A DNA stretch of 64,000 bases, from the NCBI RefSeq assembly GCF_022213955.1, contig NZ_JAKNTW010000002.1, positions 310,001 through 374,000 of the forward strand, in the 5' to 3' direction. The position numbers and the translations under genes were made by a program. Below are positions 9,997-44,437 of the stretch, one piece after another. The stretch's first letter is position 1; each line of letters begins with the position of its first letter. A model generated the notes under the pieces. It saw only the letters and a list, made by a program, of their open reading frames with translations. It did no database searches and had not been told where the DNA came from. The stretch comes from Dolomitihabitans soli (GTDB lineage Bacteria; Actinomycetota; Actinomycetes; Streptosporangiales; Streptosporangiaceae).

Positions 9997-10806
9997 ATGT
10001 CGATGACGCCCCTGACCGGCCCGATGTGTACGCGCGAATCACTCGCCGCCGAGCTGCGTGAGATTGGTGTTCTCCCTGGTGAGACCCTTCTCGTGCACTC
10101 CTCCCTCAGCTCGCTCGGCTGGGTCTGCGGCGGTCCTGAGGCCGTCGTTCAGGCGCTGCTCGATGCCCTTGGTGACGACGGGACTTTGGTGGTGCCGACG
10201 CTCTCGGGGGACAACTCGGATCCGGCGACATGGGGCAATCCGCCGGTCCCTGAGACATGGTGGGCGGATATCCGTGCATCGATGCCGCCCTATGACCCGC
10301 GCACGACACCCACCCGCGGTGTCGGTGTCATCCCGGAGACAGTCCGCAATTGGCCGGGCGCCGTCCGCAGCGCCCATCCGCAGACTTCTTTCGCGGCCCT
10401 GGGTCCGCGCGCCGCTGCGATCGTGGCCGGCCACACGCTGGACTGCCAACTCGGCGAGCGAAGCCCGCTCGCACGGCTGGAGGAAGCAAGGGCGCGGATC
10501 CTGCTCCTAGGCGTGGGCTTCGCATCGTGCACGGCGTTCCATCTGGCCGAGTATCGGATCCCCGCGCCACAGGTCGATAACTCCTTCGCGGTCATGACCC
10601 CGCAGGGACGCCGTTGGAGTACCGTCCGTGACATTTCGATCAGCGAGGAGCGCTTCGGTGATCTGGGGGCGGCCTTCGAAAAGGAGCGCCCGGTGTTCCA
10701 GGGCAAGGTGGGCGCGGCCGAGACTCGGCTGTTCTCCCTGGCTGACACTGTCGCATTCGCCGAGGTCTGGCTGGCCGAGCACCGGCCGCGTACCGCCTCG
10801 ACCTGA
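9997..10806 (+). CDS. AAC(3)-family aminoglycoside N-acetyltransferase-like protein
   Basis: 269 residues. LLVHSSLSSLGWVCGGPEAVVQALLDALG near the N-terminus and DGTLVVPTLSGD are hallmark segments of the aminoglycoside 3-N-acetyltransferase/antibiotic NAT family; HLAEYRIP lies in the later conserved region. The family transfers acetyl from acetyl-CoA to the 3-amino group of aminoglycosides, although many actinomycete members have no tested drug substrate. ATG 9997 or 10003 begins the conserved domain within about 15 residues; no clear ribosome binding site precedes either. It stands alone, divergent from the catabolic operon. Confidence 0.85.
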   Translation: MSMTPLTGPMCTRESLAAELREIGVLPGETLLVHSSLSSLGWVCGGPEAVVQALLDALGDDGTLVVPTLSGDNSDPATWGNPPVPETWWADIRASMPPYDPRTTPTRGVGVIPETVRNWPGAVRSAHPQTSFAALGPRAAAIVAGHTLDCQLGERSPLARLEEARARILLLGVGFASCTAFHLAEYRIPAPQVDNSFAVMTPQGRRWSTVRDISISEERFGDLGAAFEKERPVFQGKVGAAETRLFSLADTVAFAEVWLAEHRPRTAST

Positions 10807-10823
10807 TGTCCCGCTCTCGGGCC

Positions 10824-11717
10824 TCAGCTTCGTGGCACCTGGTAGAGGGCGCCGTCGCCCCAGGTGGCGGTGTGCAGGACTCCGTCCGGGTCGGCGGCCA
10901 GCGCCACCGGGGAGCCGAGCCCCGACATCACCGCCACGGCCTGGCCGTCCCTTTCGATCCGCTTGATCTGGCCGCCGGACAAGTCCACGGCGAACAGGCG
11001 GTCGTCGCGGTCGACGACCATGCCCACGCCCAGGCCTTGGAAATCGTCGGAGAACGGCTCCGCCTCGCCGTCGCGCGTGATCCGGGAGACCACGCCGCCG
11101 ACGTAGTTGGACACGTAAATCGTTCCTGCGGAGTCCTCGACGACCCCGACCGGCGTGTTGAGGCCACCCGCCACGCGGCTGACCGCGCCGTCCGGGGCGA
11201 CGCGCATGATCTCGTCGCTGGCCCTGTTGCAGACCAGCAGGTTGCCCCGGGAGTCGAAACTGATCCCCGCGGGGGTGTGGAAACCGGTGGCGAAGGTCTG
11301 TCGTTCTCCGGAGGGCATCACCCGGTGGATGACGTCGTCGGAGTAGCCGGCGACGTACAGATTGCCCTTGCCGTCGATGGCCAGGCCCGACGGAGAGGAG
11401 ATCTCGGCGAAGGTGGAGCGGCGTCCATCGGACGTGATGCGCTCCACCGTTCCCGCGGACCAGTTGGACACGTACACGCTGCCGTCCGGGCCGTAGACCA
11501 TGCCGGTCGGGGCGGAGAAGTCGGTGTACAGCGGAGAGCCGGGGGTGGCCGGGGACCCAGGAGAGGCGGGGGTCCCGGTGGTGGCCAGGCTGGACGCCGG
11601 CGTACCGGCCCGCGGCTGTCCGCCGTCACCGGCGCATGCCGACAGGGCGGTCATCAGCAGGGCGCCCGCGACCAGCACGCGCGGCCCGTTCAAGCCGGAG
11701 GCGAAGGGGAACCGCAT
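10824..11717 (-). CDS. NHL/SMP-30-like beta-propeller lipoprotein
   Basis: 297 residues. The signal peptide ends in a lipobox LSAC followed by AGDGG, so it should be a membrane-anchored extracellular lipoprotein, then a Pro/Thr/Ser-rich spacer (about 30-65). The rest is a regular propeller with repeated blades such as PTGMVYGPDGSVYVSN, PSGLAIDGKGNLYVAG and PAGISFDSRGNLLVCN, the pattern of NHL, gluconolactonase and virginiamycin-B-lyase-like proteins. It starts 2 bp after the CMD gene and ends the MerR operon. Ligand or reaction unknown; a binding or sensing role is as likely as catalysis. Confidence 0.85.
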   Translation of the reverse strand: MRFPFASGLNGPRVLVAGALLMTALSACAGDGGQPRAGTPASSLATTGTPASPGSPATPGSPLYTDFSAPTGMVYGPDGSVYVSNWSAGTVERITSDGRRSTFAEISSPSGLAIDGKGNLYVAGYSDDVIHRVMPSGERQTFATGFHTPAGISFDSRGNLLVCNRASDEIMRVAPDGAVSRVAGGLNTPVGVVEDSAGTIYVSNYVGGVVSRITRDGEAEPFSDDFQGLGVGMVVDRDDRLFAVDLSGGQIKRIERDGQAVAVMSGLGSPVALAADPDGVLHTATWGDGALYQVPRS

Positions 11718-11719
11718 GA

Positions 11720-12133
11720 TCAGACCTCCCCGGTACGACCCGCGCCGACGGGCAGCAGGCCCCGTTCGGCGAACACACGCTTGGCCACGAAGACGGCGTT
11801 GAGCGCCTTCGGGAAACCGCAGTACACGCTGCTGTGGATCAGCGCCTCGACGATCTCCTCGGGCGTCAGCCCCACGTTCAGCGCGGCGTTGAGATGGACC
11901 TCAAGTTGCGGCTCGCAACCACCGAGGGCGGTCAGCACGCCGATGGTGACCAGCTGCCGCTGCCGCGGCCGCAGCCCCGGCCTGGCGTAGATGTCGCCGA
12001 AGCCGTAAGACACGATGTGCCTGGCCAGATCAGGCGCGATGTCGCGCAGGGATTCAACGACCCGGTGACCGCTCTCCCCATCCACCGTGTCCAAGACCTT
12101 AAGGCCGCGCGCATATCGTTCGTCTTCCATCAT
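11720..12133 (-). CDS. Carboxymuconolactone decarboxylase (CMD) family protein
   Basis: 137 residues, the usual size. PGLRPRQRQLVTIGVLTALGG, then QLEVHLNAALNVGLTPEEIVEALIHSSVYCGFPKALNA, match the all-helical CMD core. The AhpD-type CxxC pair is not present, so this is the decarboxylase-like branch rather than the peroxidase-like one. Its start overlaps the MerR stop (ATGA), so the two are probably co-translated. A role in reactive-carbonyl or aromatic metabolism is possible, but the MerR-controlled setting does not identify the substrate. Confidence 0.88.
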   Translation of the reverse strand: MMEDERYARGLKVLDTVDGESGHRVVESLRDIAPDLARHIVSYGFGDIYARPGLRPRQRQLVTIGVLTALGGCEPQLEVHLNAALNVGLTPEEIVEALIHSSVYCGFPKALNAVFVAKRVFAERGLLPVGAGRTGEV

Positions 12134-12540
12134 CGCTCTCCTTCCAGCAGTTCCTCATAGTGGGCGATCTTGGTATCCAGGGCACGGTTGTTCTCCCGCA
12201 AACTGCGGATGCGCCTGTCGACGCCGTCGCGGTGCTCGCGCAGCAGGGCCAGGCGCTCTGCCACGCTCGCGTCCCCCTCGCGGCGCAGCCCGGCGAAGCG
12301 CTGCATGTTGGCGATCGACATGCCCGTGTCGCGCAGGCGGAGCAGGAAGGCCAGCCAGTCCATGTCGACGGCCGCGTACCGCCGGACGCCGCCGGCTGTG
12401 CGGCGCACGCTGTCGATGAGGCCGGCTTTCTCGTAGTACCGCAGGGTGTCGGCCGACAGACCCGTACACCGGGCGACCTCGGCGATGGGCAGCGTCTCAT
12501 CCTCGTCGAGGGCGGGAGCCGCCGGTGATGTCATGGTCAT
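12130..12540 (-). CDS. MerR-family transcriptional regulator
   Basis: 136 residues. The HTH begins at about residue 17 (LPIAEVARCTGLSADTLRYYEKAGLI), followed by the second wing and a long dimerisation helix ending in NNRALDTKIAHYEELLEGER. No cysteine pattern of metal-sensing MerR proteins is present, which suggests an organic or redox-independent signal. The ATG at 12540 sits about 7 bp after the predicted -10 box, so the mRNA is probably leaderless. It is first in an operon with CMD and NHL-lipoprotein genes and should autoregulate through the palindrome in its own promoter. Confidence 0.92.
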   Translation of the reverse strand: MTMTSPAAPALDEDETLPIAEVARCTGLSADTLRYYEKAGLIDSVRRTAGGVRRYAAVDMDWLAFLLRLRDTGMSIANMQRFAGLRREGDASVAERLALLREHRDGVDRRIRSLRENNRALDTKIAHYEELLEGER

Positions 12541-24114: not shown

Positions 24115-25239
24115 TCATTTGCCGGTGTCGCCGGTGACCAGGCCGAGCGCCGACCGGATGTCGGTCAGGATCTCGTTGGTCAGCCGTTCGCTGTCGTGCA
24201 GCAACCGCTCCACCTCGCCGTTGTGCGCGGGCTGCTGCTGCGCGGGAACCGCCGCGACGGCCGCCGCCGGGGACGTCGCGGCTGCCGGGGCGGGCATCCG
24301 CATCACCTGCCCGACCAGGAGCGATGCCCGGGTCCCTTCCAGGCAGGCGTTCATCCGCGTGGCCTGTCCCTGGGTGAACATGAACATGGCCGCGTCGTCG
24401 GTGTAGTCCATGTAGTTCATGAACATGTCGCCGTGGGGGCCGTTGTCGCAGGTGATGCGGGGGAAGGTCGGGACGCCGGTGTTCGAGTCCGCCTGGTTCG
24501 GCGTGTCGGCGACCTTGTCGTCGCTGGTGCACGCGCCGTCGTCGTCGCCCCAGATGTGGTACAGGTCCAGCCAGTGGCCGATCTCGTGCGTCGCGGTGCG
24601 GCCGCCGTCGAAGGGAGCCGCCGCCGTGCCGGTGGTCCCGAAGGCGGAGTGCAGGATGACGACGCCGTCGGTCTGTGGCGGACCGCCGGGGAACTGGGCG
24701 TAGCCGAGGAGGGAGCCGCCCAGCTGGCACACCCACATGTTGAGGTACTGGTCACTCGGCCAGGGGTCGGACCCGCCGGTGGCGCTGGCCTTGACGCCGT
24801 TGTCCCAGGAGAAGCTGAGCTGGTCGGTCGGGACCCGGATGATTCCGTCGGTCGGTTCGCCGTTGGGATCGAGCGTCGCGAGCTGGAACTCGACCTTGAT
24901 GTCCGCCACCAGCGGTTTCCACACCGCCGGCACGTTTCCCACGTCGGAGTTGGTTGCGCGGAAATCCTTGTTGAGGACCTCGATCTGACTGTGGATCTGC
25001 GCGTCGCCGATGTTCAGCTCAGGAGTCTTCGGGTTGTAGACCACGTGGACGACGACGGGCAGGGTGACCACTTCGGTACGCAGGGAGGCGCGACGGCCGC
25101 GCTCGTACTGCAACGCCCGGTTCTCGATCGCGGCGCGCCGCGATCGGTAGGTCATGCTCTCGTTGAGCAACTGGCGGTGGACGAGCATGGTGGCGCACAG
25201 GTCACGGCTCGGCGGCTGCGGAGATCCGTATTCGGTCAT
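24115..25239 (-). CDS. M43-like (pappalysin/cytophagalysin) zinc metalloprotease
   Basis: 374 residues. Extended zinc motif HEIGHWLDLYH (H218-H228), followed by WGDDDGAC..D(K)VADTPNQ, and the Met-turn region MNYMDYTDD, all diagnostic for M43 metzincins. A C-terminal Ala/Pro-rich linker leads to a short helical tail. M43 proteases are normally secreted; here the N-terminus (MTEYGSPQPPSRDL) has no signal peptide. It is the first gene of the three-gene operon and is divergent from the 39-codon peptide gene and YcaO. Processing of a peptide in the cell is a possibility, not a demonstrated role. Confidence 0.88.
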   Translation of the reverse strand: MTEYGSPQPPSRDLCATMLVHRQLLNESMTYRSRRAAIENRALQYERGRRASLRTEVVTLPVVVHVVYNPKTPELNIGDAQIHSQIEVLNKDFRATNSDVGNVPAVWKPLVADIKVEFQLATLDPNGEPTDGIIRVPTDQLSFSWDNGVKASATGGSDPWPSDQYLNMWVCQLGGSLLGYAQFPGGPPQTDGVVILHSAFGTTGTAAAPFDGGRTATHEIGHWLDLYHIWGDDDGACTSDDKVADTPNQADSNTGVPTFPRITCDNGPHGDMFMNYMDYTDDAAMFMFTQGQATRMNACLEGTRASLLVGQVMRMPAPAAATSPAAAVAAVPAQQQPAHNGEVERLLHDSERLTNEILTDIRSALGLVTGDTGK

Positions 25240-25481
25240 GAGAATCCTTCCCGAGTGGAACCGGGTGGCTCACCCGGTCCGGAGCACCCCTGGCACGTCT
25301 GAAACGCTCTGCGCCCGACGTACCCACCCTCGAATCCCCTTCAAGCTCCCAAAATCGCAAATAACCGACTAATGCGAATTTTCCCGATTAGGAGGGCCGC
25401 TCGGGAGCTTGGCGCTCTGGTTTACCGATGGCGCCGCCGGGCATTTGTGCCCCTGTACTTCCGCGAACGGAGGTGAGTCTC
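25240..25481. promoter_or_regulatory. Divergent control region between M43 operon and peptide/YcaO genes
   Basis: This gap is more AT-rich than its surroundings around 25348-25392. For the minus strand, TTGAAG (25339-25344) and TACGTC (25317-25322) are 16 bp apart, a possible promoter. A CTAAT/ATTAG inverted repeat (25369-25391) may bind a regulator. I find no convincing -35/-10 pair for the plus-strand peptide gene. Confidence 0.35.
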
Positions 25482-25601
25482 ATGGGACATATTGTGGACT
25501 TCTCCACAGCCGAATCGCTCGACAGAAGCGCCCAGGAACTGACCGGGGCCGAGCGTGAGCGCCTGGAGGAATTCCTTCAGGAAACGAACGGCGAAGGCTG
25601 A
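25482..25601 (+). CDS. 39-aa peptide, candidate precursor for the adjacent YcaO enzyme
   Basis: The ATG at 25482 is preceded by GGAGGTGA with 6-bp spacing, one of the best ribosome binding sites in the window. The 39-residue product starts MGHIVDFSTAES, has an amphipathic acidic segment LTGAERERLEEFLQE (20-34) and ends TNGEG. It is acidic (ten Asp/Glu against three Arg), has no Cys, several Ser/Thr, and a C-terminal Gly-rich end. It ends 102 bp before the YcaO gene on the same strand. RiPP precursors often pair an acidic helical leader with a short C-terminal core; here the core would be very short, so it may instead be a helper peptide. Not recognised as a known family. Confidence 0.65.
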   Translation: MGHIVDFSTAESLDRSAQELTGAERERLEEFLQETNGEG

Positions 25602-25703
25602 GCAACGGCACGACCCGCAACCGAAACGATGGGCATGGGATCGGTTCTCCCATGCCCATGGTCACCGGCCATCCTCGAATCGACGCCGGCGGGAGGTCAA
25701 GGA

Positions 25704-26999
25704 ATGGCGGGACGGGGTTCGGTGACGGAGGGGATGCGCGGCCCGCCGTCCGAGCCGGAGCGTGTCGTGTCGCTGGGAGAGGCCGAGCGACGGGCGCTGG
25801 CGGCACTGGCCGCCTTGGACCTGCGGCCGGAACTCGCCGACCTGGGGCGGGGCGGCGATCCGACCGCCTGGTGGTGCCGCCTGCTCGCCGGCGACGGGGA
25901 CCTGCCGCCGACGGCGCGGGGAATGGGGAAGGGACGGCCCGACGAGGCGCGTGTGGGAGCGCTGTTCGAGGCCCTTGAGCACTACCTCACCGGCCCGGCC
26001 GGGTTCGATCCCGCGGCAGTGGAGATGGCCACGCCCGCCGAGATCGCCGCCGGGCCGCTGCGGGACGATCCCTGTGCCGTACTGCTGGCCGGGATGCCCG
26101 CCGAGCGGCTGGCCTGCCACCGCTATCGCCCCCTGCGAGGAGGCCGGGAGGCGCTGATGCCGCTGTTCCTGTCGGCTCCCTGGTATGTCGACGCCGGCCG
26201 CCTGCGCGAGCTGGCCGGGGACGCCTGCGACTACGGCCAGTTGATGCGCTACAGCTGCAACAGCGGCTCGGCCGTCGGCGTCACCGCTGAGGAGGCACTG
26301 CTGCACGCCCTCAACGAGGTCATCGAACGGGACGCCTTCTCCCTGCTCCTGGTGCGGTCCTTCCTCCGCCGCGGCGGCTTCCGGCCCACCGTGATCGACC
26401 CGGCGACGCTCCCGGCCGAGCCGGCCCGTGCGTACGCGGCGGCCGGGGAGCTCACCGGCGCTCCGGTGTACCTGCTGGACATCACCAGCGACCTCGGGGT
26501 GCCGACCATGCTCGCCTACACCGCCCCCACCGTCCGTCACCCGCACCGGCGCGGTGCGGGAACCTCGCTGAACCCCGGCTACGCCGCTTGGCGCGCCCTC
26601 ACCGAACTCGTCCAGACCACCCTTGGCGAAAGCCTGTCCCGCCACCCGCCACGCGGAGAACCGGCGGGGCTGGCCGCCTATCCCGCGCTGCACGCGTGCG
26701 GACGGTTCGACCTCACCGGCACCCTGCGCGGCGCCCGTACCGTCCCGTTCGCCGCGGGGCGCCGGGTTCCCGGTCCTCCACACGCCCAGTTGCGCGAGGT
26801 GGTCGCCATCCTGACCGCGCACGGCCACACGCCTTACCACCGGACGGTGACCGCCCTCCCCGGTGAGATCACCGCCGTGCACGCGGTCGTGCCGGGCCTG
26901 GAACGCTTCATGCTGATCACGGACGGTAACCTCGTCCTGCCGGGACTCCGGGGCCGGGCCGCCGCCGATGTCCACTCCGCCGGTGTCCTCAGAGGGTGA
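25704..26999 (+). CDS. YcaO-domain protein (ATP-dependent peptide backbone modifying enzyme)
   Basis: 431 residues from the ATG at 25704, 7 bp after GGAGG. ATP/Mg-binding motifs of YcaO are intact: FEALEHY (88-94), CNSGSAVGVTAEEALLHALNEVIERDAF (about 185-212) and AGTSLNPGYAAWRALTELVQTTL (about 285-307, E301 and Q304). YcaO enzymes activate backbone amides with ATP to form azolines, thioamides or amidines. There is no fused or adjacent E1-like/RRE partner, no dehydrogenase and no TfuA in the window, and no Pro-rich C-terminus, so it would be a stand-alone type. The 39-codon ORF upstream is the candidate substrate. Confidence 0.88.
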   Translation: MAGRGSVTEGMRGPPSEPERVVSLGEAERRALAALAALDLRPELADLGRGGDPTAWWCRLLAGDGDLPPTARGMGKGRPDEARVGALFEALEHYLTGPAGFDPAAVEMATPAEIAAGPLRDDPCAVLLAGMPAERLACHRYRPLRGGREALMPLFLSAPWYVDAGRLRELAGDACDYGQLMRYSCNSGSAVGVTAEEALLHALNEVIERDAFSLLLVRSFLRRGGFRPTVIDPATLPAEPARAYAAAGELTGAPVYLLDITSDLGVPTMLAYTAPTVRHPHRRGAGTSLNPGYAAWRALTELVQTTLGESLSRHPPRGEPAGLAAYPALHACGRFDLTGTLRGARTVPFAAGRRVPGPPHAQLREVVAILTAHGHTPYHRTVTALPGEITAVHAVVPGLERFMLITDGNLVLPGLRGRAAADVHSAGVLRG

Positions 27000-27133: not shown

Positions 27134-29287
27134 ATGGCGGCACGACACTGGCAACAGAGTCCCAAGGCCAAGGCTTCGGTAGTGGTGGGCCTTTTGTTAC
27201 TGGCTCTCGCGGCCGTCCTCCTATTCCTGGCCCCCAAACTTCCGATGGGCGGGATAGCCGTCGGGTTCGTGTCGATCGTGTCGGCGACGGCCAGCGTGGT
27301 GGCACTCGGGAACGGGATGCTGCAGTTGTTCTCCTGGTGGCGTAAGTCCACCCGGCCCGCGTCCGCCCCCACGACCACCGACATCGAGAAGGCCAAGGAC
27401 ATCCTCGCGGGCCTGGTGACCGAGCAGTGGAGGAACGAGACGGTCCTGCGGTCGCTCGGCGATCCCGAGCCCATGCCGGTGCCCTGGCGGTCGACCGAAC
27501 ACGAAGAGCTGGTCGACCATCCCGACCTGATCGCCAAAGGCGTCCTGGCCTTCCCCAACCTCGACGTGCACATCGCCACCATGGCCGACGACTTCCGCGC
27601 GCTGCGCTGCCGGCGCCTGGTCATCCTCGGCGGGCCGGGAACGGGCAAGACGACCCTGGCCGTGCAACTGCTCCTGGAACTCCTGAAGACACGGCAGCCC
27701 GATGAGCCCGTTCCCGTGCTGTTCTCGGCGGCACGCTGGGACAACGAGGCCCATCCTCAGTTGCGGGACTGGCTCGCGGCGAGCCTGGCGCTGGACTATC
27801 CCGCGCTGCGCGCCGAAGATCTCGGTCCGGACACCCCGAGAACGCTGGCGAGCCGCGGTGAGGTGCTGCCCGTCATCGACGGGCTGGACGAGTTGTCCGA
27901 CCAGGCCCGCGCCGACATGCTCGCGGCGCTGAACCGGTCGATGTGCGAATCCGACCAGGTGATCCTCACCTGCCGCACGGCCCAGTTCGCCGAATCCGTC
28001 GAAGCGCTGGACGATGTGCTCAGCGCGGCGGCGGTCATCGAGCCGCAGCCCCTCTCCCCCGGCGTGGCGGCCGACTACCTGCAGGCGTGCCTCTCCCGCC
28101 GGTCCCACCGCAACTGGCCCGCCGTCCTGGACGCGTTGCGCACGACCACCGCACCCGCGCTGGCCGAGGTCGCCTCCACGCCCCTGGGACTCTGGCTGAT
28201 CCGCGCCACCTACATCGCCCCCGGCAAGGATCCGAGCCCGCTGCTGGACCTCGGACGCCGGACCGCGCCCGAGCTGACCGACCACCTGTGCGACCAGCTC
28301 ATCCCCGCCCTCGTCGGCGCGCGTCCGCCCGCCGACGCCCCGGCCCAGCCGTTCCGGCCGCAGCACGCCTGGAACCCCGAGCAGGTGGACCGCTGGCTGA
28401 CCTACCTCTCCCGCCAGCTCATGCTCAGCGGCGAGGACACCCACGACGTGGCCTGGTGGCACCTGGCGCGCTACACCCCCAGCCGTTGGGTACGGCTGGC
28501 GGTCAGCGTCGCGTGCGGGCTCGTGGTCGCGGTCGTGATCGGCATGCTGACGGCGAACCCGCTCGCCGGCGCGGTGACCGGAATCCTGTCCGGGCTGGTG
28601 GTCATGGTCATGATCGGTTCATGGTTCACCGAGTCGCCCGGCTATGCCGACTTCCAGCTCAGGGGACGGCTCCCCCTCATCCTCCGCTCCCTGCGGGACG
28701 GACTGATCGTCGGCATCCTGGGGGCACTCGTGGGCTGGTTCATGGGGCGGCCCTATGGCGCCGGTCTCTACGCCGCGACCCAGATCGGCCTGTTGTCCGG
28801 GCTCGGCTTCGTGTTCGTACTCGGCCTGATCCGATGGGTCGAGCATCCCACCCCCGCCACCACGGCGAGATCTCCTCGCTCGACCTGGCAGGCCGACCGG
28901 AATCTCACCCTCATCCGGACGATCAGCGGGCTCCTGATCGGCACCCTGGTGGCGGTCATCGGGCTCCGCGACGTGCTGGCGTGGGACACCGCGCTCGTGG
29001 GCGGACTCGTGCTGGGGCTGCTCTTCGGGCTCATGCTGGGCAGTCACCACGCCTGGCTGGCCTACAAGCTGACCATTCCCCGGCTCGCCACCAGGGGAAG
29101 GCTGCCGCTGCGGGCGATGAACTTCCTCGACGACGCCCACCGGCTGGGCCTGCTGCGGACCGAGGGGCCCTTCTACCAGTTCCGGCACGTCGAACTGCAG
29201 CAGCACCTCGCCCGGTCCCGGGAGCGGCCCCCCAGCGGCACGGATCAGGAGGGCCGCGGCACCCGCGGGCCCGTCGCGAGGTCGTGA
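27134..29287 (+). CDS. Membrane NACHT-domain NTPase
   Basis: 717 residues. Two N-terminal transmembrane helices (about 14-60), then NACHT: Walker A GGPGTGKTT (166-174), Walker B LPVIDGLDEL (245-254), sensor-like LTCRT, and a winged region. The C-terminal third carries several further transmembrane helices (starting RWVRLAVSVACGLVVAVVIG) and ends in FRHVELQQHLA. NACHT is a STAND-type NTPase found in animal innate immunity and bacterial antiphage (bNACHT) proteins; this membrane-embedded type occurs in actinomycetes with no known role. The start lies in unusually AT-rich DNA without a clear ribosome binding site (GTG 27098 is an alternative). Its 3' end overlaps the convergent GMC gene by 43 bp. 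Confidence 0.85.
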   Translation: MAARHWQQSPKAKASVVVGLLLLALAAVLLFLAPKLPMGGIAVGFVSIVSATASVVALGNGMLQLFSWWRKSTRPASAPTTTDIEKAKDILAGLVTEQWRNETVLRSLGDPEPMPVPWRSTEHEELVDHPDLIAKGVLAFPNLDVHIATMADDFRALRCRRLVILGGPGTGKTTLAVQLLLELLKTRQPDEPVPVLFSAARWDNEAHPQLRDWLAASLALDYPALRAEDLGPDTPRTLASRGEVLPVIDGLDELSDQARADMLAALNRSMCESDQVILTCRTAQFAESVEALDDVLSAAAVIEPQPLSPGVAADYLQACLSRRSHRNWPAVLDALRTTTAPALAEVASTPLGLWLIRATYIAPGKDPSPLLDLGRRTAPELTDHLCDQLIPALVGARPPADAPAQPFRPQHAWNPEQVDRWLTYLSRQLMLSGEDTHDVAWWHLARYTPSRWVRLAVSVACGLVVAVVIGMLTANPLAGAVTGILSGLVVMVMIGSWFTESPGYADFQLRGRLPLILRSLRDGLIVGILGALVGWFMGRPYGAGLYAATQIGLLSGLGFVFVLGLIRWVEHPTPATTARSPRSTWQADRNLTLIRTISGLLIGTLVAVIGLRDVLAWDTALVGGLVLGLLFGLMLGSHHAWLAYKLTIPRLATRGRLPLRAMNFLDDAHRLGLLRTEGPFYQFRHVELQQHLARSRERPPSGTDQEGRGTRGPVARS

Positions 29288-31662
29288 TAGACGTCCCACA
29301 ACTCGCCGAGGAACAACGTGCCGAACCGCGCCAGGCCGGCCGGCCCGTCAGGTCCCGAGGTGCGGAACGTCGTGAGCTGGCGGAGGAAGTCGGGCAGGCG
29401 GATCGTGATGACGCCCGCGGCGACCACGGGGGCCGCTGCGTCCCCGGCGGGCGCCGTGTGCCCGCGCAGCACACGGAGGTGGAGGGTCGAGGTGTCGCGC
29501 CACACGTCGGCCCCGGGGTCGTCGCGCACGTCCTTGTGCCCGACGAGGGTCAGCGGTGTGCCATCGCCGGCGAAGTGGAGGCGGTAGAGCATCCGCCGGT
29601 GCGCCGGGTCCTCGTCCCGCACGAAGAGGTTGAACCACCCCGCCGTCACCGGCAGGCGTTCGCCGCCGAGTTCGGCGCAGCTCACCCATCCGGTCACGGC
29701 GGCCTCGTGCCCGGCCTCCGCCACGAAGCGGTCGACGTCGTCGGTCCTGATGGTCAGGTGGACCATCAGCCGATGGCCGTTCGCGCGGCCCAGCCGTTCG
29801 CCCTCGACGGGGTCGGTGACGCCGGGCGCGACGTGGCCGCGCATCTCCTCGGTGAAGCTCAGGCCGGTGGTCTCCGCCGGCGCGGCGGGCCGTACGCCGG
29901 CGGCGGAGGCAGCGGTGTGGCGGGCCGGGTGGGGTTCCGCGTCGAGGATGTGCTCGCACGCCCGGTCGGAGAGCGCGGCGATGGTCAGGGAGGGGTTGGT
30001 GCCCACCGGGCCGGGCATGGACGCGCCGTCGAGCACGTACAGGCCCGGATAGCCGAAAACCTGGCCGTACTCGTCGACGACGCCTTCGCCGGGGTGCCGT
30101 CCCATCGGGGCGCCGCCGAGCGGGTGCACCGTGATCACCCTGCGGGTCCGCCACAGCGGGCTGTCCTGGTAGCCGGCGTTCAGCACCCGGGCGATGTCCC
30201 GCATGGTGATGCGCATCTGGGTGAAGAAGGCCATGGAGGTGCTGGTCGTCCAGTCGACGTCGAGGTAGCCCCGGCGCAGGCGCATGACCCCGTCGGGCAC
30301 GTCCCGGCCCATCCCGAGCAGTCCCAGCGACCCGTCGGAGAGGCGCCCGTCGCCGATCAGCGCGGCCAGCTCCGCGTTGATCCGGGTCTGCGGGGACCGG
30401 GTGAGAGCCGCCCTGGCCCTGCCGAGAACGAAGAGACCGGCACGCCTGAGCTGGCCGCGCACCCCGGCGAGCTCCGCCAGCCACTCCACGAAGGGCGGGT
30501 AACCGGCGTCCTCGACGTAGAAGCCTCGCCGGCCCGGTGTCGTACGGCCGGCGTCGGCGGCGTCCGGCACCCGGATCGCACCGGTGATCACCGGCCCGCG
30601 ACTGCCCTCCAGCGACAGATGGCGGCCGGCGTCGTCGCGGGCGCGCACGATCATGGTGAACAGGTCGCCGTTGCCGCAGAACCGGGTGCCGAGCCGGTGA
30701 CTGAGGCCGGGGAACGCCGCCTTGCAGGTCAGCAGCAGGTAGGTGGTGCCGAGCGTGCCCGCGGCCAGGACGAGCCGGTCGCACGTGATGGTGTGCGAAG
30801 GCAGCCGCCGGGTACGGGTGCGCCGCCCTTCGTTCCGGGGATCGTGCACCACGTACCGTACGACGTAGCCGCCGCCGGGGGCCGGGGCCAGCGCTCGCAC
30901 CTCGTGCAGGGTGCGGAGGTCGGCGCCGGCGTGCCGGGCGGCCGACAGGTAGGTGTGGTCGAGGGAGTTCTTCGCGCCGTCGTTGCACCCCAGGTCGCAC
31001 TCGCCGCGCAGCCTGCACGTGGTCCGCGGCAGCCCGTGCAGGTTGCCGTACCCGGGATCGGGGATGGGCAGGCCGGGGACCGGATCGGCACCGGGCTCCG
31101 GGGCGAAGGCGACCGCCAGCGGGGGCAGCTCCCACTCCAGCCCGAGCCGCTCGGCGGTCTCCCGCATCATCCGGGTCTTGGCCGTCGTGTCGTAGGGCGG
31201 CAGGTCGAGGGGGTAGCGCTGGGCCTGCAGCATCCGTTCCACGGCGTCGTAGTGCGGGTCGAGGTCGGCGCGGGACACCGGCCAGTTCTCGTAGCCGCCG
31301 CCGGGCAGCGGGCTTTCCCGCACGAACCACCGTTCGGGCTTGCGCAGCAGGACGTTGGCGTAGATGAGGGAGCCGCCGCCGAGCCCGCTGGACACGGCCG
31401 CCCCGGTGCCGCGGAAGCTCCACAGGTCGAACAGGCCGTACAGGCCCTCGCTCGGGTCCCACAGGTTGCGGCTCATCGCGGCGGGCGCGCGCGGGAAGGA
31501 ACCCGGAGGGTACGGCTTGCCGCGCTCCAGCACGACCACCCGCTTGCCGGCCGCCGCGAACCGGTAGGCCGCCACGGCTCCGCCGAATCCCGAGCCCACG
31601 ATCACGACGTCGGTGTGCTCGTTGTCAGGAGGGCTTCCCTGGTGACGACGATAATCGTTCAT
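29245..31662 (-). CDS. GMC-family FAD oxidoreductase (cholesterol-oxidase-like)
   Basis: 805 residues. FAD-binding VVIVGSGFGGAVAAYRF (19-35), GGGSLIYANV, a Cys-containing GLPRTTCRLRGECDLGCNDGAKNSLD insert, and the C-terminal GMC motif VHPLGGAPMGRHP ... LYVLDGASMPGPVGTNPSLTIAALSDRACEHIL. About 240 extra C-terminal residues form a beta-rich domain seen in fused cholesterol-oxidase-like proteins. The N-terminus has no signal peptide. AAGGGGAGCGGA precedes the ATG. Divergent from the alpha/beta hydrolase operon and probably part of the same pathway, oxidising a sterol or other lipid alcohol. Confidence 0.9.
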   Translation of the reverse strand: MNDYRRHQGSPPDNEHTDVVIVGSGFGGAVAAYRFAAAGKRVVVLERGKPYPPGSFPRAPAAMSRNLWDPSEGLYGLFDLWSFRGTGAAVSSGLGGGSLIYANVLLRKPERWFVRESPLPGGGYENWPVSRADLDPHYDAVERMLQAQRYPLDLPPYDTTAKTRMMRETAERLGLEWELPPLAVAFAPEPGADPVPGLPIPDPGYGNLHGLPRTTCRLRGECDLGCNDGAKNSLDHTYLSAARHAGADLRTLHEVRALAPAPGGGYVVRYVVHDPRNEGRRTRTRRLPSHTITCDRLVLAAGTLGTTYLLLTCKAAFPGLSHRLGTRFCGNGDLFTMIVRARDDAGRHLSLEGSRGPVITGAIRVPDAADAGRTTPGRRGFYVEDAGYPPFVEWLAELAGVRGQLRRAGLFVLGRARAALTRSPQTRINAELAALIGDGRLSDGSLGLLGMGRDVPDGVMRLRRGYLDVDWTTSTSMAFFTQMRITMRDIARVLNAGYQDSPLWRTRRVITVHPLGGAPMGRHPGEGVVDEYGQVFGYPGLYVLDGASMPGPVGTNPSLTIAALSDRACEHILDAEPHPARHTAASAAGVRPAAPAETTGLSFTEEMRGHVAPGVTDPVEGERLGRANGHRLMVHLTIRTDDVDRFVAEAGHEAAVTGWVSCAELGGERLPVTAGWFNLFVRDEDPAHRRMLYRLHFAGDGTPLTLVGHKDVRDDPGADVWRDTSTLHLRVLRGHTAPAGDAAAPVVAAGVITIRLPDFLRQLTTFRTSGPDGPAGLARFGTLFLGELWDVYHDLATGPRVPRPS

Positions 31663-31683
31663 TCCGCTCCCCTTCGGCCGACC

Positions 31684-31732
31684 TTGTCAAGTCGCGGGGG
31701 GAGGGCACACAATAAAATGGTAACCGACCGGT
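31684..31732 (+). promoter_or_regulatory. Candidate promoter and operator for the lipid-oxidation operon
   Basis: TTGTCA (31684-31689) and CACAAT (31708-31713) are 18 bp apart. The inverted repeat ACCGACCGGT (31723-31732) covers the transcription start region and the GTG start of the hydrolase, and resembles TetR-type half sites. No TetR gene is in the window. Confidence 0.35.
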
Positions 31733-32870
31733 GAGCCAAGCACCGGAGTCAGTAGTCCAGATCAGGGCAATCCGGCTCGTCAAGCCCGGGATCGCGGCGA
31801 TCAACATGGATGGACCACTCGCTACACGGGAACGCGTCATCCCTTTCACCGCCGGTGACGGCATGAATCTCAACCTCGTCAATGTGCGGGGGAACAGTCC
31901 GCCCGCAAAGTCCCCGGTCATCGTCGTCCACGGTGCGGGAGTGCGGTCAGGGGTGTTCCGCGCCCCCGTGCCCACGAACCTCGTGGACGCGCTCGTCGCC
32001 CACGGACACGACGTCTGGCTGGAGGACTGGCGGGCCAGCATCGACCTGCCGCCCAACGCCTGGACCCTCGACCAGGCGGCGCTGCACGACCATCCCGCCG
32101 CCGTGCGCAAGGTCATCGAGGAGACCGGGGCGGACCGGATCAAGGCGATCATCCACTGCCAGGGCTCCACCTCGTTCATGATGTCCGCCTGCGCCGGGCT
32201 GGTCCCCCAGGTCGACACGATCATCACGAACGCGGTGTCCCTGCACACGGTCGTGCCACGGTGGTCACGGGCCAAGCTCCGGTACGCCGTGCCGCTCGCC
32301 GCCCGGTTCCTGTCCTACCTCGACCCCTCCTGGGGAGATCGTCCGCCACCGGGCGCGGCCAAGGCGATCACCCTGCTGGTCAAGGCCGCCCACCACGAGT
32401 GCGCCAGCACGGTGTGCAAGCTGGTGAGCTTCACCTACGGCAGCGGATTCCCGGCCCTGTGGCGGCACGAGAACGTCGGCGCCGGCACGCACGACTCCTG
32501 GATCCCGCACGAGTTCGGCCCGGTGCCGCTGACGTTCTTCCGGCAGATGGACCGATGCGTACGGCGCGGCCACCTCGTCGCCTACGAACACCTCGACGGC
32601 CTGCCGGACGACTACACCGCCCAGGAGCCCCAGACGGACGCCCGCGTCGTCTTCCTGACCGGGGACCTGAACCGCTGCTTCCTGCCCGAGAGCCAGCGCC
32701 GGTCCTACGACTTCTTCGCGGGCCACCACCCCCGCCACCACGCCCTGCACATCCTGCCGGGCTACAGCCACCTGGACGTCTTCTTCGGCGATCGCGCCCA
32801 TCGCGACGTCTTCCCACTGATCATCGAGGAACTGGCCGGTTCCCCGACGCGCCACCGGGAGGGATCTTGA
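31731..32870 (+). CDS. Alpha/beta-hydrolase-fold protein with Cys at the nucleophile elbow
   Basis: 379 residues from a GTG at 31731. VIVVHGAGVRSGVFRAP forms the oxyanion region, and AIIHCQGSTSF (about 139-149) is the nucleophile elbow in which Cys143 replaces the usual Ser (GxSxG read as IHCQG). PGYSHLDVFFG near the end holds the catalytic His. A Cys nucleophile is seen in dienelactone hydrolases and in hydrolase-like proteins associated with GMC oxidases. First gene of the operon divergent from the GMC oxidase; its end overlaps the next gene (TTGA). Confidence 0.85.
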   Translation: MSQAPESVVQIRAIRLVKPGIAAINMDGPLATRERVIPFTAGDGMNLNLVNVRGNSPPAKSPVIVVHGAGVRSGVFRAPVPTNLVDALVAHGHDVWLEDWRASIDLPPNAWTLDQAALHDHPAAVRKVIEETGADRIKAIIHCQGSTSFMMSACAGLVPQVDTIITNAVSLHTVVPRWSRAKLRYAVPLAARFLSYLDPSWGDRPPPGAAKAITLLVKAAHHECASTVCKLVSFTYGSGFPALWRHENVGAGTHDSWIPHEFGPVPLTFFRQMDRCVRRGHLVAYEHLDGLPDDYTAQEPQTDARVVFLTGDLNRCFLPESQRRSYDFFAGHHPRHHALHILPGYSHLDVFFGDRAHRDVFPLIIEELAGSPTRHREGS

Positions 32871-33784
32871 GCTCATTCTCGGCGGGACACCGGCGTACGG
32901 CCGGCCGCTTCGCCAACGTCGACGGCATCCCCTTCCGCATGCCGGTGGGGACCCGGGGCAGCCCGGCCTTGCTGGCCGCCTACACCATCGACCCGGAGGA
33001 GGCGCGGGCCGTACTTCCGGCGGAGCTGCGTCCCTACCGGATGCTCGGCGGCGGGGTGCTGCTGATCGGGGTCGTCGACTACCGGGACACCACGATCGGC
33101 ACCTATGTGGAGTTCTGCATCGGAATCCTGTGCACCCGGAGTTCCCGGCCGGCGCCGCCCCTGCTGCCGCTGCTGCTCGGTTCCTTCTTCGGCACCGGCG
33201 TCTACATCTATGACCTGCCCGTGAGCACCGAGATCTCGGTGAAGGGCGGGCGCGGCATCTGGGGCATGCCCAAACGGCGGGCCAACCTCGACTTCGTCAT
33301 CGGCGACACCACGGTGAGCAGCCAGTACGACCTCGACGGGCAGATGGTCATGCGCGTCGACGTCCCCCGCCCTGCGCGGACACGGCTGCCGTTGCGGTTC
33401 AGCGGCGTCGGGTACGGATGCTTCCGCGGCATGCTCGCCAAATCGTCGATCTCGATGCGCGGCCGGATGGGCGTGACCTGGGGAGGCGGCCCCGGCAGCC
33501 GCCTGCTCATCGGCGACCACGAGCGGGTGGCGTGGTTGAAGCGGCTGGGCGTCCCGGACCGGCCGCTCCTGACGGCCTTCGTCCCGTCGATGCACGGCAC
33601 GCTCGACGACCACGTGGAGACGTGGTTCCTCACCTCGGACTCCGCGCCCGCGCCGGCCGAGGACGGCCTGGAGAGCCTGGTCGGCATGGGGCTCGGCCAG
33701 GACCGGCTGCCGCCTCCCGACCGCGCCCACAGCGACCGTCTGCTGGGGATGCCCGGATCGCGCGAACACATCGTGAGCAGGTGA
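32867..33784 (+). CDS. Acetoacetate-decarboxylase-like protein
   Basis: 305 residues from the TTG at 32867, which overlaps the hydrolase stop and follows GGGAGGG. GRGIWGMPKRRANLDF (about 129-143) contains the Lys (K136) matching the Schiff-base lysine of acetoacetate decarboxylase, and LLGGGVLLIGVVDYRDTTIGTY-like strands match the family core. Members decarboxylate beta-keto acids or run aldol/hydratase chemistry. In this cluster a beta-keto acid from a lipid chain is a plausible substrate. Overlap with the patatin gene (GTGA) indicates co-translation. Confidence 0.82.
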   Translation: MSSFSAGHRRTAGRFANVDGIPFRMPVGTRGSPALLAAYTIDPEEARAVLPAELRPYRMLGGGVLLIGVVDYRDTTIGTYVEFCIGILCTRSSRPAPPLLPLLLGSFFGTGVYIYDLPVSTEISVKGGRGIWGMPKRRANLDFVIGDTTVSSQYDLDGQMVMRVDVPRPARTRLPLRFSGVGYGCFRGMLAKSSISMRGRMGVTWGGGPGSRLLIGDHERVAWLKRLGVPDRPLLTAFVPSMHGTLDDHVETWFLTSDSAPAPAEDGLESLVGMGLGQDRLPPPDRAHSDRLLGMPGSREHIVSR

Positions 33785-34689
33785 CCATCGTGAAGAGATC
33801 ACTCGTCCTGGCCGGCGGCGGCGCGAAGATCGGCTGGTCGTCCGGCGTCCTGCAGGTGCTGCTGGAGGAGTCGGACCTGGAGTTCGACCACATCGACGCC
33901 ACCAGCGGCTCGGTCTTCAACCTCGGCATGCTGCTGTCCGGCCGCTCCGCCGGGCAGATCGCCGACGCCTGGGGGAACGTCAGCCCACGGGACTTCCTCT
34001 CCTTCCACCCATGGTGGCGTTACCTGGCGTTCTGGACGCTGCCGTCGCTGCTCACCCAGGAGGCGGCGGTGCGCACGATCATTCCCAGATGGGGCATAGA
34101 CCTGGCGCGGATCAGAGCCTGCCGCGAGGTCGGCGGCCATCCGGTCACGGCCACCTTCAACGTGGTCGACTTCACCACGAAGCGGGTCAAGACCATCCCG
34201 CACCAGCAGATGGATCTCGACCACTTCCTCGCCGTCGACGCCGTCCCCGGCGTGGTCCCGCCGGTGGCCGGGGACGGCACACTCTACGTCGACGCCATGC
34301 TGCTCAAGGACGCCAACCTCACCGAAGCCGTACGGCAGGGCGCCGACGAGATCTGGGTGATCTGGGCGATCGAGGACCGGCCCGAGTGGCGCGGCGGATT
34401 CTGGAACCACTTCGGCCACATCTTCGAGATCTGCGCCACGGGCAACCTCAAGCGCGAACTCGACCAGATAGAGGAGATCAACAAGCGGGTCGCGGCCGGC
34501 ACCGCCGCGCCGGGGCAGCGCCACGTCACCGTGCACGTCGTCCGGCCGACCGGACCGATCCCGGTCGGCTACCTCTTCTTCCGCGGCAGGCGGCAGATGC
34601 GACCCACGATCGAGGCCGGCCGGGTCGCCGCCAGGGACTTCCTCGTCAGGACGGGGCACCTGCGCACGGCCACGCCGCAGCCGGTGTGA
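33781..34689 (+). CDS. Patatin-like phospholipase/acyl hydrolase
   Basis: 302 residues. Oxyanion loop GGGAKIG (12-18), nucleophile Ser42 in ATSGSVFN (GxSxG variant), and a later TLYVDAMLLKDANL supplying the catalytic Asp. Patatins release fatty acids from phospho- or glycolipids using a Ser-Asp dyad. Start GTG 33781 overlaps the preceding stop (GTGA); GTG 33790, behind AGGTGA, is a good alternative. No signal peptide. Its stop codon lies within a 20-bp tandem duplication. It could supply the fatty acid substrate for the heme peroxidase downstream. Confidence 0.88.
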   Translation: MTIVKRSLVLAGGGAKIGWSSGVLQVLLEESDLEFDHIDATSGSVFNLGMLLSGRSAGQIADAWGNVSPRDFLSFHPWWRYLAFWTLPSLLTQEAAVRTIIPRWGIDLARIRACREVGGHPVTATFNVVDFTTKRVKTIPHQQMDLDHFLAVDAVPGVVPPVAGDGTLYVDAMLLKDANLTEAVRQGADEIWVIWAIEDRPEWRGGFWNHFGHIFEICATGNLKRELDQIEEINKRVAAGTAAPGQRHVTVHVVRPTGPIPVGYLFFRGRRQMRPTIEAGRVAARDFLVRTGHLRTATPQPV

Positions 34690-43262: not shown

Positions 43263-44437
43263 GGATCGCGTTCAAAGCCGCAACTGTGATCACGGACCTG
43301 CTCGCCGACGACGCCGTCGACGACGCGATCGTCCTCGTGGAGGACGATCGGATCGCCTGGGCCGGACCGGCCGCGGCGGCGCCCGGCGGGGAGTACCCGG
43401 TCGTCGACCTCGGCGAACGCGTCCTGCTGCCCGGGCTGATGGACGCGCACGTGCATCTGGCCTTCGACGCCGGCGCCGACCCGGTGGCGAGCATGCTCGC
43501 CAGGGACGAGGAGGCACGACTCGACGGGATGCGGCTCGCGGCACGGCAGCTGCTGGACAGCGGCGTGACCTTCGCCAGGGACCTGGGCGCGCCGTACGGG
43601 CTGTCGGTGCGGATCCGCGACGAGATCCGCGCCGGCACGACGCCGGGCCCCCGCCTGATGGTCGCCGGCCGGCCGCTGACCCGTCCGAACGGGCACTGCT
43701 GGTTCATGGGCAACGAGATCGACGGACCCGGCCAGGCCCGGGCCGCCGTCGCCGAGGAGGTCAAGGCGGGGGCCGATCTCGTCAAGGTCATGGTCACCGG
43801 GGGGCGGATGACCCACGGCACCGATCCGCTGCGGTTCGAGGTGTCGGAGGCGTCCCTGGCGGCGATCGTGGACGAGGCGCACCGGCTCGGCGTCACCGTC
43901 GCCGCGCATGCCCAGTCGACAGTGGGGGTCCGGGCGGCCGCCGCCGCGGGGGTCGACTCGGTGGAGCACGCGACGTTCATCTCACCCGAGGGCGGCGACG
44001 GCTACGACCCGGCCGTGGTCCGCGACCTGGTGAGCGCCGGCACCGGGGTCTGCCCCACGCTCGGGGTCGCCGGCGCGCACGCCCACCCCATCGCGTTCGA
44101 CGTCAGGGGCGGCTGGATCGCCCGGTTGCACGCCGCCGGCGTGCCGATCCTCGCGGGGACCGACTCCGGCATCCCGCGGCACCCCCACGCCGGCGGGGTC
44201 GTCGACGGGCTGCGCGGTCTCGTCGCCTCCGGCCTGTCGGTACGGCAGGCGCTGGCGGCGGCCACCGAGACCGGGATGCGAGCCGCCGGGCTGGAGAAGG
44301 CCGGCGCGGTGAAGCCCGGTTACCTGGCCGACCTGATCGCGGTCGACACGGACCCGCGTTCCGGCGTCGACGCGCTCCTCGACCCGGCGTTCGTCGTCGC
44401 GGCCGGCCGGGTCGTCAAGGACACCGTCCCGCGCTGA
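43259..44437 (+). CDS. Metal-dependent amidohydrolase (imidazolonepropionase/prolidase-like)
   Basis: 392 residues. LLPGLMDAHVHLAFDAG has HxH (H64, H66); VKVMVTGG carries the candidate carboxylated Lys; VTVAAHAQS and VEHATFI supply two His; ILAGTDSGIP the catalytic Asp. The C-terminus KPGYLADLIAVDTDP is typical of the dihydroorotase/imidazolonepropionase group. Cytoplasmic. With a class V PLP enzyme and an importer it probably forms a short catabolic route for an N-acyl or cyclic amide amino acid derivative; histidine-type or lactam substrates are possible. Confidence 0.9.
   Translation: MRIAFKAATVITDLLADDAVDDAIVLVEDDRIAWAGPAAAAPGGEYPVVDLGERVLLPGLMDAHVHLAFDAGADPVASMLARDEEARLDGMRLAARQLLDSGVTFARDLGAPYGLSVRIRDEIRAGTTPGPRLMVAGRPLTRPNGHCWFMGNEIDGPGQARAAVAEEVKAGADLVKVMVTGGRMTHGTDPLRFEVSEASLAAIVDEAHRLGVTVAAHAQSTVGVRAAAAAGVDSVEHATFISPEGGDGYDPAVVRDLVSAGTGVCPTLGVAGAHAHPIAFDVRGGWIARLHAAGVPILAGTDSGIPRHPHAGGVVDGLRGLVASGLSVRQALAAATETGMRAAGLEKAGAVKPGYLADLIAVDTDPRSGVDALLDPAFVVAAGRVVKDTVPR

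What the first reader, a model, noticed from the sequence alone, without database searches (positions are those of the whole stretch)
25482..26999. Possible RiPP-type locus: 39-codon peptide ORF upstream of a stand-alone YcaO enzyme
A 39-residue acidic, helix-prone peptide with a near-perfect ribosome binding site lies 102 bp upstream of a YcaO protein whose ATP-binding motifs are intact. No E1-like, RRE, TfuA or dehydrogenase partner is present. The peptide has no Cys, so azoline formation from Cys is excluded; thioamidation, amidine formation or Ser/Thr azolines remain possible. The peptide does not match a precursor family I know.
Basis: partly seen in the sequence, partly recalled or inferred. 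Interest (0 to 1): 0.8.

Follow-up and report, generated by a model that had tools for sequence, protein, structure and literature searches.

The report
Minimal bottromycin-type peptide gene pair
A 39-residue peptide gene and the stand-alone YcaO enzyme gene beside it form a conserved pair in soil actinobacteria; the enzyme belongs to the family that builds the antibiotic bottromycin, so the pair probably makes an unknown N-terminally modified peptide, usually next to a gene for an immune-type (NACHT) ATPase.

Summary
In detail: a 39-codon ORF (25482-25601) with a strong ribosome-binding site lies 102 bp before a stand-alone YcaO gene (25704-26999). It is not a chance ORF: the peptide is under purifying selection beside nearly every close YcaO ortholog, and 185 sampled family genomes without the enzyme lack it. 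Distant members of the YcaO clade carry other short M-[Gly/Ala] peptides in the same place (9 of 10; controls 5 of 157; other YcaOs 0 of 23). A tree joins the clade with both bottromycin YcaOs (100/99) apart from 28 other actinobacterial YcaOs; BtmF, the macroamidine-forming one, nests inside or is its sister. Best reading: a minimal bottromycin-type RiPP with an N-terminal core after Met removal, a C-terminal helical follower, and a YcaO acting alone, probably forming an amidine with the Gly2 amine. The chemistry is inferred. Peptide homology to BotA is not significant, and bottromycin's methylases, P450, M17 peptidase, Cys and second YcaO are absent. A membrane NACHT ATPase follows in most close loci, and varied degradative enzymes flank many; both are unexplained.

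The parts
25469..25476 (+). Shine-Dalgarno sequence GGAGGTGA of the peptide gene
   Evidence: sequence; G-rich sites precede the ATG of the orthologous peptide genes
25482..25601 (+). Peptide gene, 39 aa, MGHIVDFSTAESLDRSAQELTGAERERLEEFLQETNGEG: candidate precursor
25485..25502 (+). Proposed start of the core: Gly2-His3-Ile4-Val5-Asp6-Phe7, with Gly2 as N-terminus after Met removal (inferred)
   Evidence: G2 and D6 invariant, residue 7 always Phe/Tyr, residue 5 always aliphatic in 22 orthologs
25512..25598 (+). Proposed C-terminal follower (ESLD...Q.LT..E...L..L); helix predicted for residues 22-37 (25545-25592)
25629..25659 (+). 12-bp stem-loop between peptide and ycaO genes (ATGGGCATGGGA...TCCCATGCCCAT), possible attenuator; no U-run on this strand; similar one in L037 and between BotA and BtmE, but absent where the genes overlap
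   Evidence: z only -1.67
25704..26999 (+). Stand-alone YcaO enzyme, 431 aa, bottromycin-type clade
27134..29287 (+). NACHT STAND NTPase, 717 aa, 8 TM-like segments by hydropathy (about 2 before, 6 after the NACHT domain); same-strand gene downstream of ycaO in most close loci
24115..25239 (-). Peptidase M43-like protein, divergent; effector-like neighbour, functional association not shown
   Evidence: homologs also beside the module in L005 and L074
23763..24080 (-). Small conserved protein (105 aa), no Pfam match, also near the module in L005, L044, L045, L074
22505..23743 (-). Peptidase M28; flanking, functional association not shown
   Evidence: a protein read from its sequence as M28-like also flanks the pair in L037

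Best explanation
This is a minimal bottromycin-type RiPP operon. The peptide is a leaderless precursor: after ordinary methionine aminopeptidase removes Met1 (M-G-H/N should be a normal substrate, unlike the M-G-P of bottromycin), Gly2 is the N-terminus of the core, and the acidic C-terminal helix is a follower that the YcaO binds directly, so no E1-like, RRE or TfuA partner is needed. The YcaO uses ATP to activate a backbone amide near the N-terminus; by kinship with BtmF the free Gly amine most likely attacks it to give an amidine, perhaps a macroamidine at residue 5, an aliphatic position as in bottromycin. A protease then frees the core. SHOWN: gene pair, co-occurrence, selection, predicted YcaO fold and motifs, tree position. 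INFERRED: core and follower boundaries, amidine chemistry, follower removal, and any link of the product to the downstream NACHT NTPase.
For: Peptide beside all close YcaOs examined except one. 15 of 201 family genomes have it, all among the 16 with the YcaO, 14 adjacent. Purifying selection. The YcaO ORF overlaps the peptide stop by 11-14 nt in 13 of 21 loci measured, which suggests an operon. 9 of 10 distant clade YcaOs have an SD-preceded M-[G/A] short ORF upstream, against 5 of 157 control genes (P 9e-11) and 0 of 23 other YcaOs (P 3e-7); the same rule finds BotA. The clade HMM scores BtmF 192 bits, against 45 or less for the genome's other YcaOs. Tree: clade plus BtmE plus BtmF against 28 other YcaOs at 100/99, BtmF inside; kept without BtmE and long branches, 100/100. 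Coil then helix in the peptide model. BtmF role and Gly1 attack on the Val4-Val5 amide: PMC5103208.
Against: Peptide-to-BotA similarity is not significant (HMM 1.3 bits, reached by 7% of shuffles; hhalign P 0.063), and no match to the bottromycin precursor model NF033414 was reported. BtmF needs the amidohydrolase BtmI for efficient cyclisation in vivo, and none is adjacent here (nearest Amidohydro_1 17 kb away). The N-terminal region is well conserved in the close group, unusual for an antibiotic core. No dedicated exporter or tailoring enzyme is conserved. In genome G028 the peptide sits with NACHT and the YcaO is 198 kb away.
Confidence: 0.66

Rival explanations
1. Conflict or immune module: the (modified) peptide is the ligand, trigger or inhibitor of the membrane NACHT STAND NTPase, and the flanking proteases, nuclease and lipases are its effectors. 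YcaO modification sets the peptide's activity. Compatible with the best explanation but different in purpose.
For: NACHT follows in most close loci; its close orthologs (61% identity or more) occur only in genomes with peptide and YcaO (12 genomes); G028 keeps peptide plus NACHT without an adjacent YcaO. Flanking genes include trypsin-like proteases (8 loci), two fused to Endonuclease_NS, plus subtilases, M43, patatin and haem peroxidase. PMC7159879 describes trypsin + NucA (+S8, STAND) conflict systems.
Against: The nearest relative with peptide and YcaO (L037) lacks NACHT, as do distant clade members. Flanking enzymes vary and some loci have none; the control scan covered only NACHT-paralog loci. 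Only weak partial PADLOC matches.
Confidence: 0.25
2. The peptide is not a substrate but a small partner or activator of the YcaO, which modifies another protein (as MJ1094-type YcaO is thought to act on McrA).
For: Well conserved N-terminus within the close group, D6/SLD/Q/LT fixed; acidic helical peptide; no product-tailoring genes conserved.
Against: The N-terminal sequence differs wholly between subgroups of one YcaO clade while M-[G/A] stays; the bottromycin YcaOs in the same clade act on such a peptide.
Confidence: 0.15
3. The YcaO makes an oxazoline or a thioamide on the peptide rather than an amidine.
For: Ser12 and Thr21 are invariant in the close group; BtmE, the probable thiazoline-forming bottromycin YcaO, also falls in the wider clade; one distant group has Cys3.
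Against: Thr21/Glu24 fit a helix-cap motif, so their conservation may have another reason; no conserved Cys in the close group; no TfuA or dehydrogenase beside it; BtmF is closer than BtmE.
Confidence: 0.17

Closest known systems
Bottromycin biosynthesis (BtmD/BotA precursor, BtmF macroamidine YcaO, BtmE YcaO)
   Same: Short leaderless precursor starting M-G, C-terminal acidic part, partner-less YcaO of the same clade, precursor gene before the YcaO gene; M-G-x-V-V-x-(F/Y) spacing shared by eye
   Different: One YcaO, no Cys, no radical-SAM methylases, P450, M17 peptidase or amidohydrolase beside it; peptide similarity not significant; a NACHT gene follows
Streptamidine / 'Network 1' RiPPs (PMC8442711)
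   Same: Actinobacterial stand-alone YcaO with a short peptide; amidine product
   Different: Streptamidine's core lies inside a leader-core-follower precursor from a family with an ALV motif, and its major cluster type has a hydrolase, dehydrogenase and transporters; none of these here
MJ1094-type YcaO (McrA thioamidation family)
   Same: Closest solved structures by fold and sequence
   Different: Only remote identity; TIGR03266 scores 54 bits against a cut-off of 365
Trypsin + NucA-type conflict systems (System 3, PMC7159879)
   Same: In related loci, flanking Trypsin_2-Endonuclease_NS fusions, subtilases and a STAND NTPase gene
   Different: The word YcaO does not occur in that paper; the window itself has M43 and M28 rather than trypsin/NucA

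Membership tests
Bottromycins | Precursor recognised by NF033414 | tested here: not met
   no NF033414 match; HMM and hhalign comparison with BotA not significant
Bottromycins | Leaderless precursor, M-G start, C-terminal follower | tested here: inconclusive
   M-G invariant, coil then helix; the follower role needs biochemistry
Bottromycins | Partner-less YcaO of the BtmE/BtmF clade | tested here: met
   100/99 and 100/100 splits from 28 and 25 other YcaOs
Bottromycins | Second YcaO, radical-SAM methylases, P450, M17 peptidase in the cluster | tested here: not met
   none among the neighbours identified; the genome's other YcaOs lie on other contigs
Bottromycins | Macroamidine product | not testable with these tools
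   needs co-expression and MS/MS
Azol(in)e RiPPs (TOMM/LAP) | E1-like or Ocin-ThiF partner, Cys/Ser/Thr-rich core, TOMM_cyclo_SagD model | tested here: not met
   no such neighbour seen; no Cys; SagD model 66 bits against a cut-off of 219
Thioamitides | TfuA partner and thioviridamide-type precursor | tested here: not met
   no TfuA neighbour seen; NF033415 14 bits against a cut-off of 40
Streptamidine Network 1 | Precursor with ALV motif | tested here: not met
   no ALV in the conserved part of the peptide or its orthologs; motif from PMC8442711
bNACHT / STAND defence | NACHT NTPase with intact Walker A that defends against phage | tested here: inconclusive
   NACHT 2e-10, GGPGTGKT present; defence not tested; only weak partial PADLOC hits

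The most novel reading that the evidence does not exclude
A three-gene immune-type system in which a bottromycin-type YcaO makes an N-terminally cyclised peptide that a membrane NACHT NTPase senses or is held inactive by, with varied degradative enzymes as effectors: a RiPP used as an internal signal of a bacterial NLR-like protein.
Probability: 0.15. Interest if true: 0.88.

Novelty: new variant of a known kind. Interest (0 to 1): 0.62.

Why it matters
Bottromycin has been a rather isolated chemotype. These data place its macroamidine YcaO with a broader clade whose members sit beside short M-[Gly/Ala] peptides of several unrelated core types. That gives a handle for predicting precursors by position (N-terminal core, C-terminal follower) and a two-gene system, without methylases or a second YcaO, for asking what such a YcaO needs. 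The steady NACHT neighbour in the close group raises a testable question: whether a RiPP can serve as ligand or trigger of a bacterial NLR-like ATPase.

Tried and rejected
Pfam and PADLOC on the peptide gave nothing; NCBIfam gave only a sub-threshold thioviridamide match. Homology of the peptide to BotA was tested and is not claimed. The intergenic hairpin looked like a conserved attenuator, but in most orthologs the genes overlap, and its z-score is -1.67. A strict script first found peptides at only 5 of 10 distant YcaOs, because the YcaO start had been placed too far upstream; with the conserved ER anchor it is 9 of 10. The idea that NACHT proteins of this family generally accompany RiPP enzymes was rejected: 15 paralog loci had no YcaO. 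The bottromycin precursor model found nothing in 395 genomes of the class; the search of one large genus of the class, taken to be Streptomyces, found two. No amidohydrolase partner is adjacent. Literature searches for YcaO with NACHT, for stand-alone YcaOs and for YcaO in Streptosporangiaceae found no description of this pair; supplementary files of the RiPPER study could not be read, and it may list these peptides.

Full report
1. Observation. The window carries ATG 25482 - stop 25601, 39 codons (MGHIVDFSTAESLDRSAQELTGAERERLEEFLQETNGEG), SD GGAGGTGA 5 nt upstream, then 102 bp, then a stand-alone YcaO gene 25704-26999. The YcaO matches Pfam PF02624 end to end and keeps the nucleotide-site residues seen in solved YcaOs. 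An AlphaFold model built from 18 orthologs is confident (pLDDT 86, pTM 0.88), and its 41 best PDB matches are all YcaO-domain chains, MJ1094 first.

2. The peptide is real. tblastn finds it upstream of all 14 orthologs fetched from named genomes (Nonomuraea, Microtetraspora, Acrocarpospora, Rhizohabitans, Spongiactinospora and others). Over 22 orthologs pN/pS is 0.41, pN<pS in every pair, and substitutions concentrate at third positions. M1, G2, D6, S12, L13, D14, Q18, L20, T21 and E24 are fixed, M1 apart from one GTG start. In 13 of 21 loci measured the YcaO ORF starts 11-14 nt before the peptide's end. In 201 genomes of the family, 15 have the peptide and all are among the 16 with the YcaO; 14 pairs are adjacent, and the 185 genomes without the YcaO have no peptide. 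The profile was built from some of the same loci, so the informative part is the absence elsewhere. The sixteenth (G076) has a divergent M-G peptide (L034). The one non-adjacent case, G028, has peptide and NACHT together with no detectable YcaO remnant in the 1.2 kb between them, and its YcaO 198 kb away on the same contig without a peptide.

3. Distant members. Ten more distant clade YcaOs (roughly 33-45% identity to this one where measured) were examined without using peptide similarity. Nine have an SD-preceded ATG-Gly/Ala ORF of 28-62 codons just upstream, against 5 of 157 control genes (Fisher P 9e-11) and 0 of 23 YcaOs outside the clade (P 3e-7). The sequences fall into unrelated types: MGAAYEPAF... 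and MGFFGAHWG...; M(A/G)C(A/W)... with an acidic C-terminus; MGNSNSNG.... What stays constant is a small second residue, which allows Met removal, and usually an acidic or helix-prone C-terminal part. The tenth (L057) could be matched only from residue 145 of its query.

4. Kinship. Two bottromycin clusters were found through NF033414 in a genus taken to be Streptomyces and fetched; both encode MGPVVVFDCMTADFLNDDPNNAELSALEMEELESWGAWDGEATS. The YcaO directly after the precursor is taken as BtmE and the next, overlapping one as BtmF, from the published order btmC-M and the overlap of btmE to btmJ (PMC7113386). The clade HMM scores BtmF 192 and 184 bits, BtmE 37 and 42, and the genome's other YcaOs 45 or less. 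In a maximum-likelihood tree of 56 YcaO domains, the clade, BtmE and BtmF form one side of a 100/99 branch against 28 other actinobacterial YcaOs, with BtmF next to the MGNSNSNG group (91/99). Without BtmE and three long branches the split is 100/100; the AU test does not reject BtmF as sister to the clade rather than inside it (p 0.08). BtmE sits on a long branch, so its place is less sure.

5. Mechanism. In bottromycin, BtmF with BtmI forms the macroamidine by attack of Gly1 on the Val4-Val5 amide after Met removal; M-G-P needs the M17 peptidase because ordinary aminopeptidases cut it poorly (PMC5103208). Here M-G-H/N/R/K should be cut by ordinary MetAP (general knowledge), consistent with no peptidase of that kind. 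The residue equivalent to Val4 of the bottromycin core (precursor residue 5) is aliphatic in all 22 orthologs and residue 7 is always Phe/Tyr, matching positions read by eye from BotA. The peptide model is coil to residue 21 and helix 22-37. I therefore favour amidine formation at the N-terminus with the helix as follower. This is inference from kinship and architecture; no sequence test here can show the reaction. The BotA resemblance itself is not significant.

6. Surroundings. A NACHT NTPase with about eight TM-like segments follows the YcaO in most close loci. Its orthologs at 61% identity or more occur only in genomes with the peptide and YcaO, while a wide paralog family (34-51%) brings the total to 69 of 201 genomes; 15 such paralog loci show no YcaO. 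The closest relative (L037) and the distant groups lack it, so it is probably an addition of the close group. Flanking genes in many loci are degradative enzymes of different families (trypsin-like in 8 loci, two with Endonuclease_NS; M43, M28, patatin, haem peroxidase, subtilase, lipase-like). A Pfam scan of the flanks of NACHT-paralog loci did not list trypsin-like or Endonuclease_NS among its top 25 families. This recalls trypsin-NucA conflict systems (PMC7159879) but is not a membership claim.

7. Verdict. The pair is a new variant of the bottromycin type of RiPP system: same YcaO clade and apparently the same core-first layout, without most bottromycin genes and with a new NACHT neighbour. 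It is not filed as a bottromycin. The RiPPER survey of stand-alone actinobacterial YcaOs (PMC8442711) recognises bottromycin and Network 1 precursors; whether its supplement lists this peptide could not be checked.

Noticed in passing
L074:5907-7328 (G028 C6): Peptide and NACHT genes intact but 1.2 kb without a detectable YcaO between them; the genome's clade YcaO is 198 kb away (L043) without a peptide beside it.
   Followed up: partly
L048, L075, L076, L077, L078: Clade members with M(A/G)C... peptides have a homologous gene just upstream, divergent (L048:4690-5739 family), read from sequence as a SAM methyltransferase; L078 also has LanB-like genes nearby by sequence.
   Followed up: no
L056 and L058 (also L079): Peptides starting MGNSNSNG beside YcaOs that are the nearest relatives of BtmF in the tree; in L079 a transporter-like gene follows.
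   Followed up: no
L007:9628-11658, L040:9548-11512: Trypsin-like protease fused to a DNA/RNA non-specific endonuclease directly downstream of the NACHT gene.
   Followed up: partly
window 29245-34689: GMC oxidoreductase, alpha/beta hydrolase, acetoacetate decarboxylase-like and patatin genes follow the NACHT gene; a homolog of the oxidoreductase ORF (77% identity) also adjoins the G028 locus.
   Followed up: no
L092-L106 flanks (alignment A4): The flanks of NACHT paralogs include single CHAT (caspase-like), M64 peptidase and WD40 proteins, themselves typical of conflict systems; not assigned to loci one by one.
   Followed up: no
window ~43421-44419: Amidohydrolase-family gene 17 kb from the YcaO; bottromycin uses such an enzyme, but nothing links this one to the pair.
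   Followed up: partly
L002:7378-9669 and 10091-12316: Two tandem NACHT genes after the YcaO.
   Followed up: no
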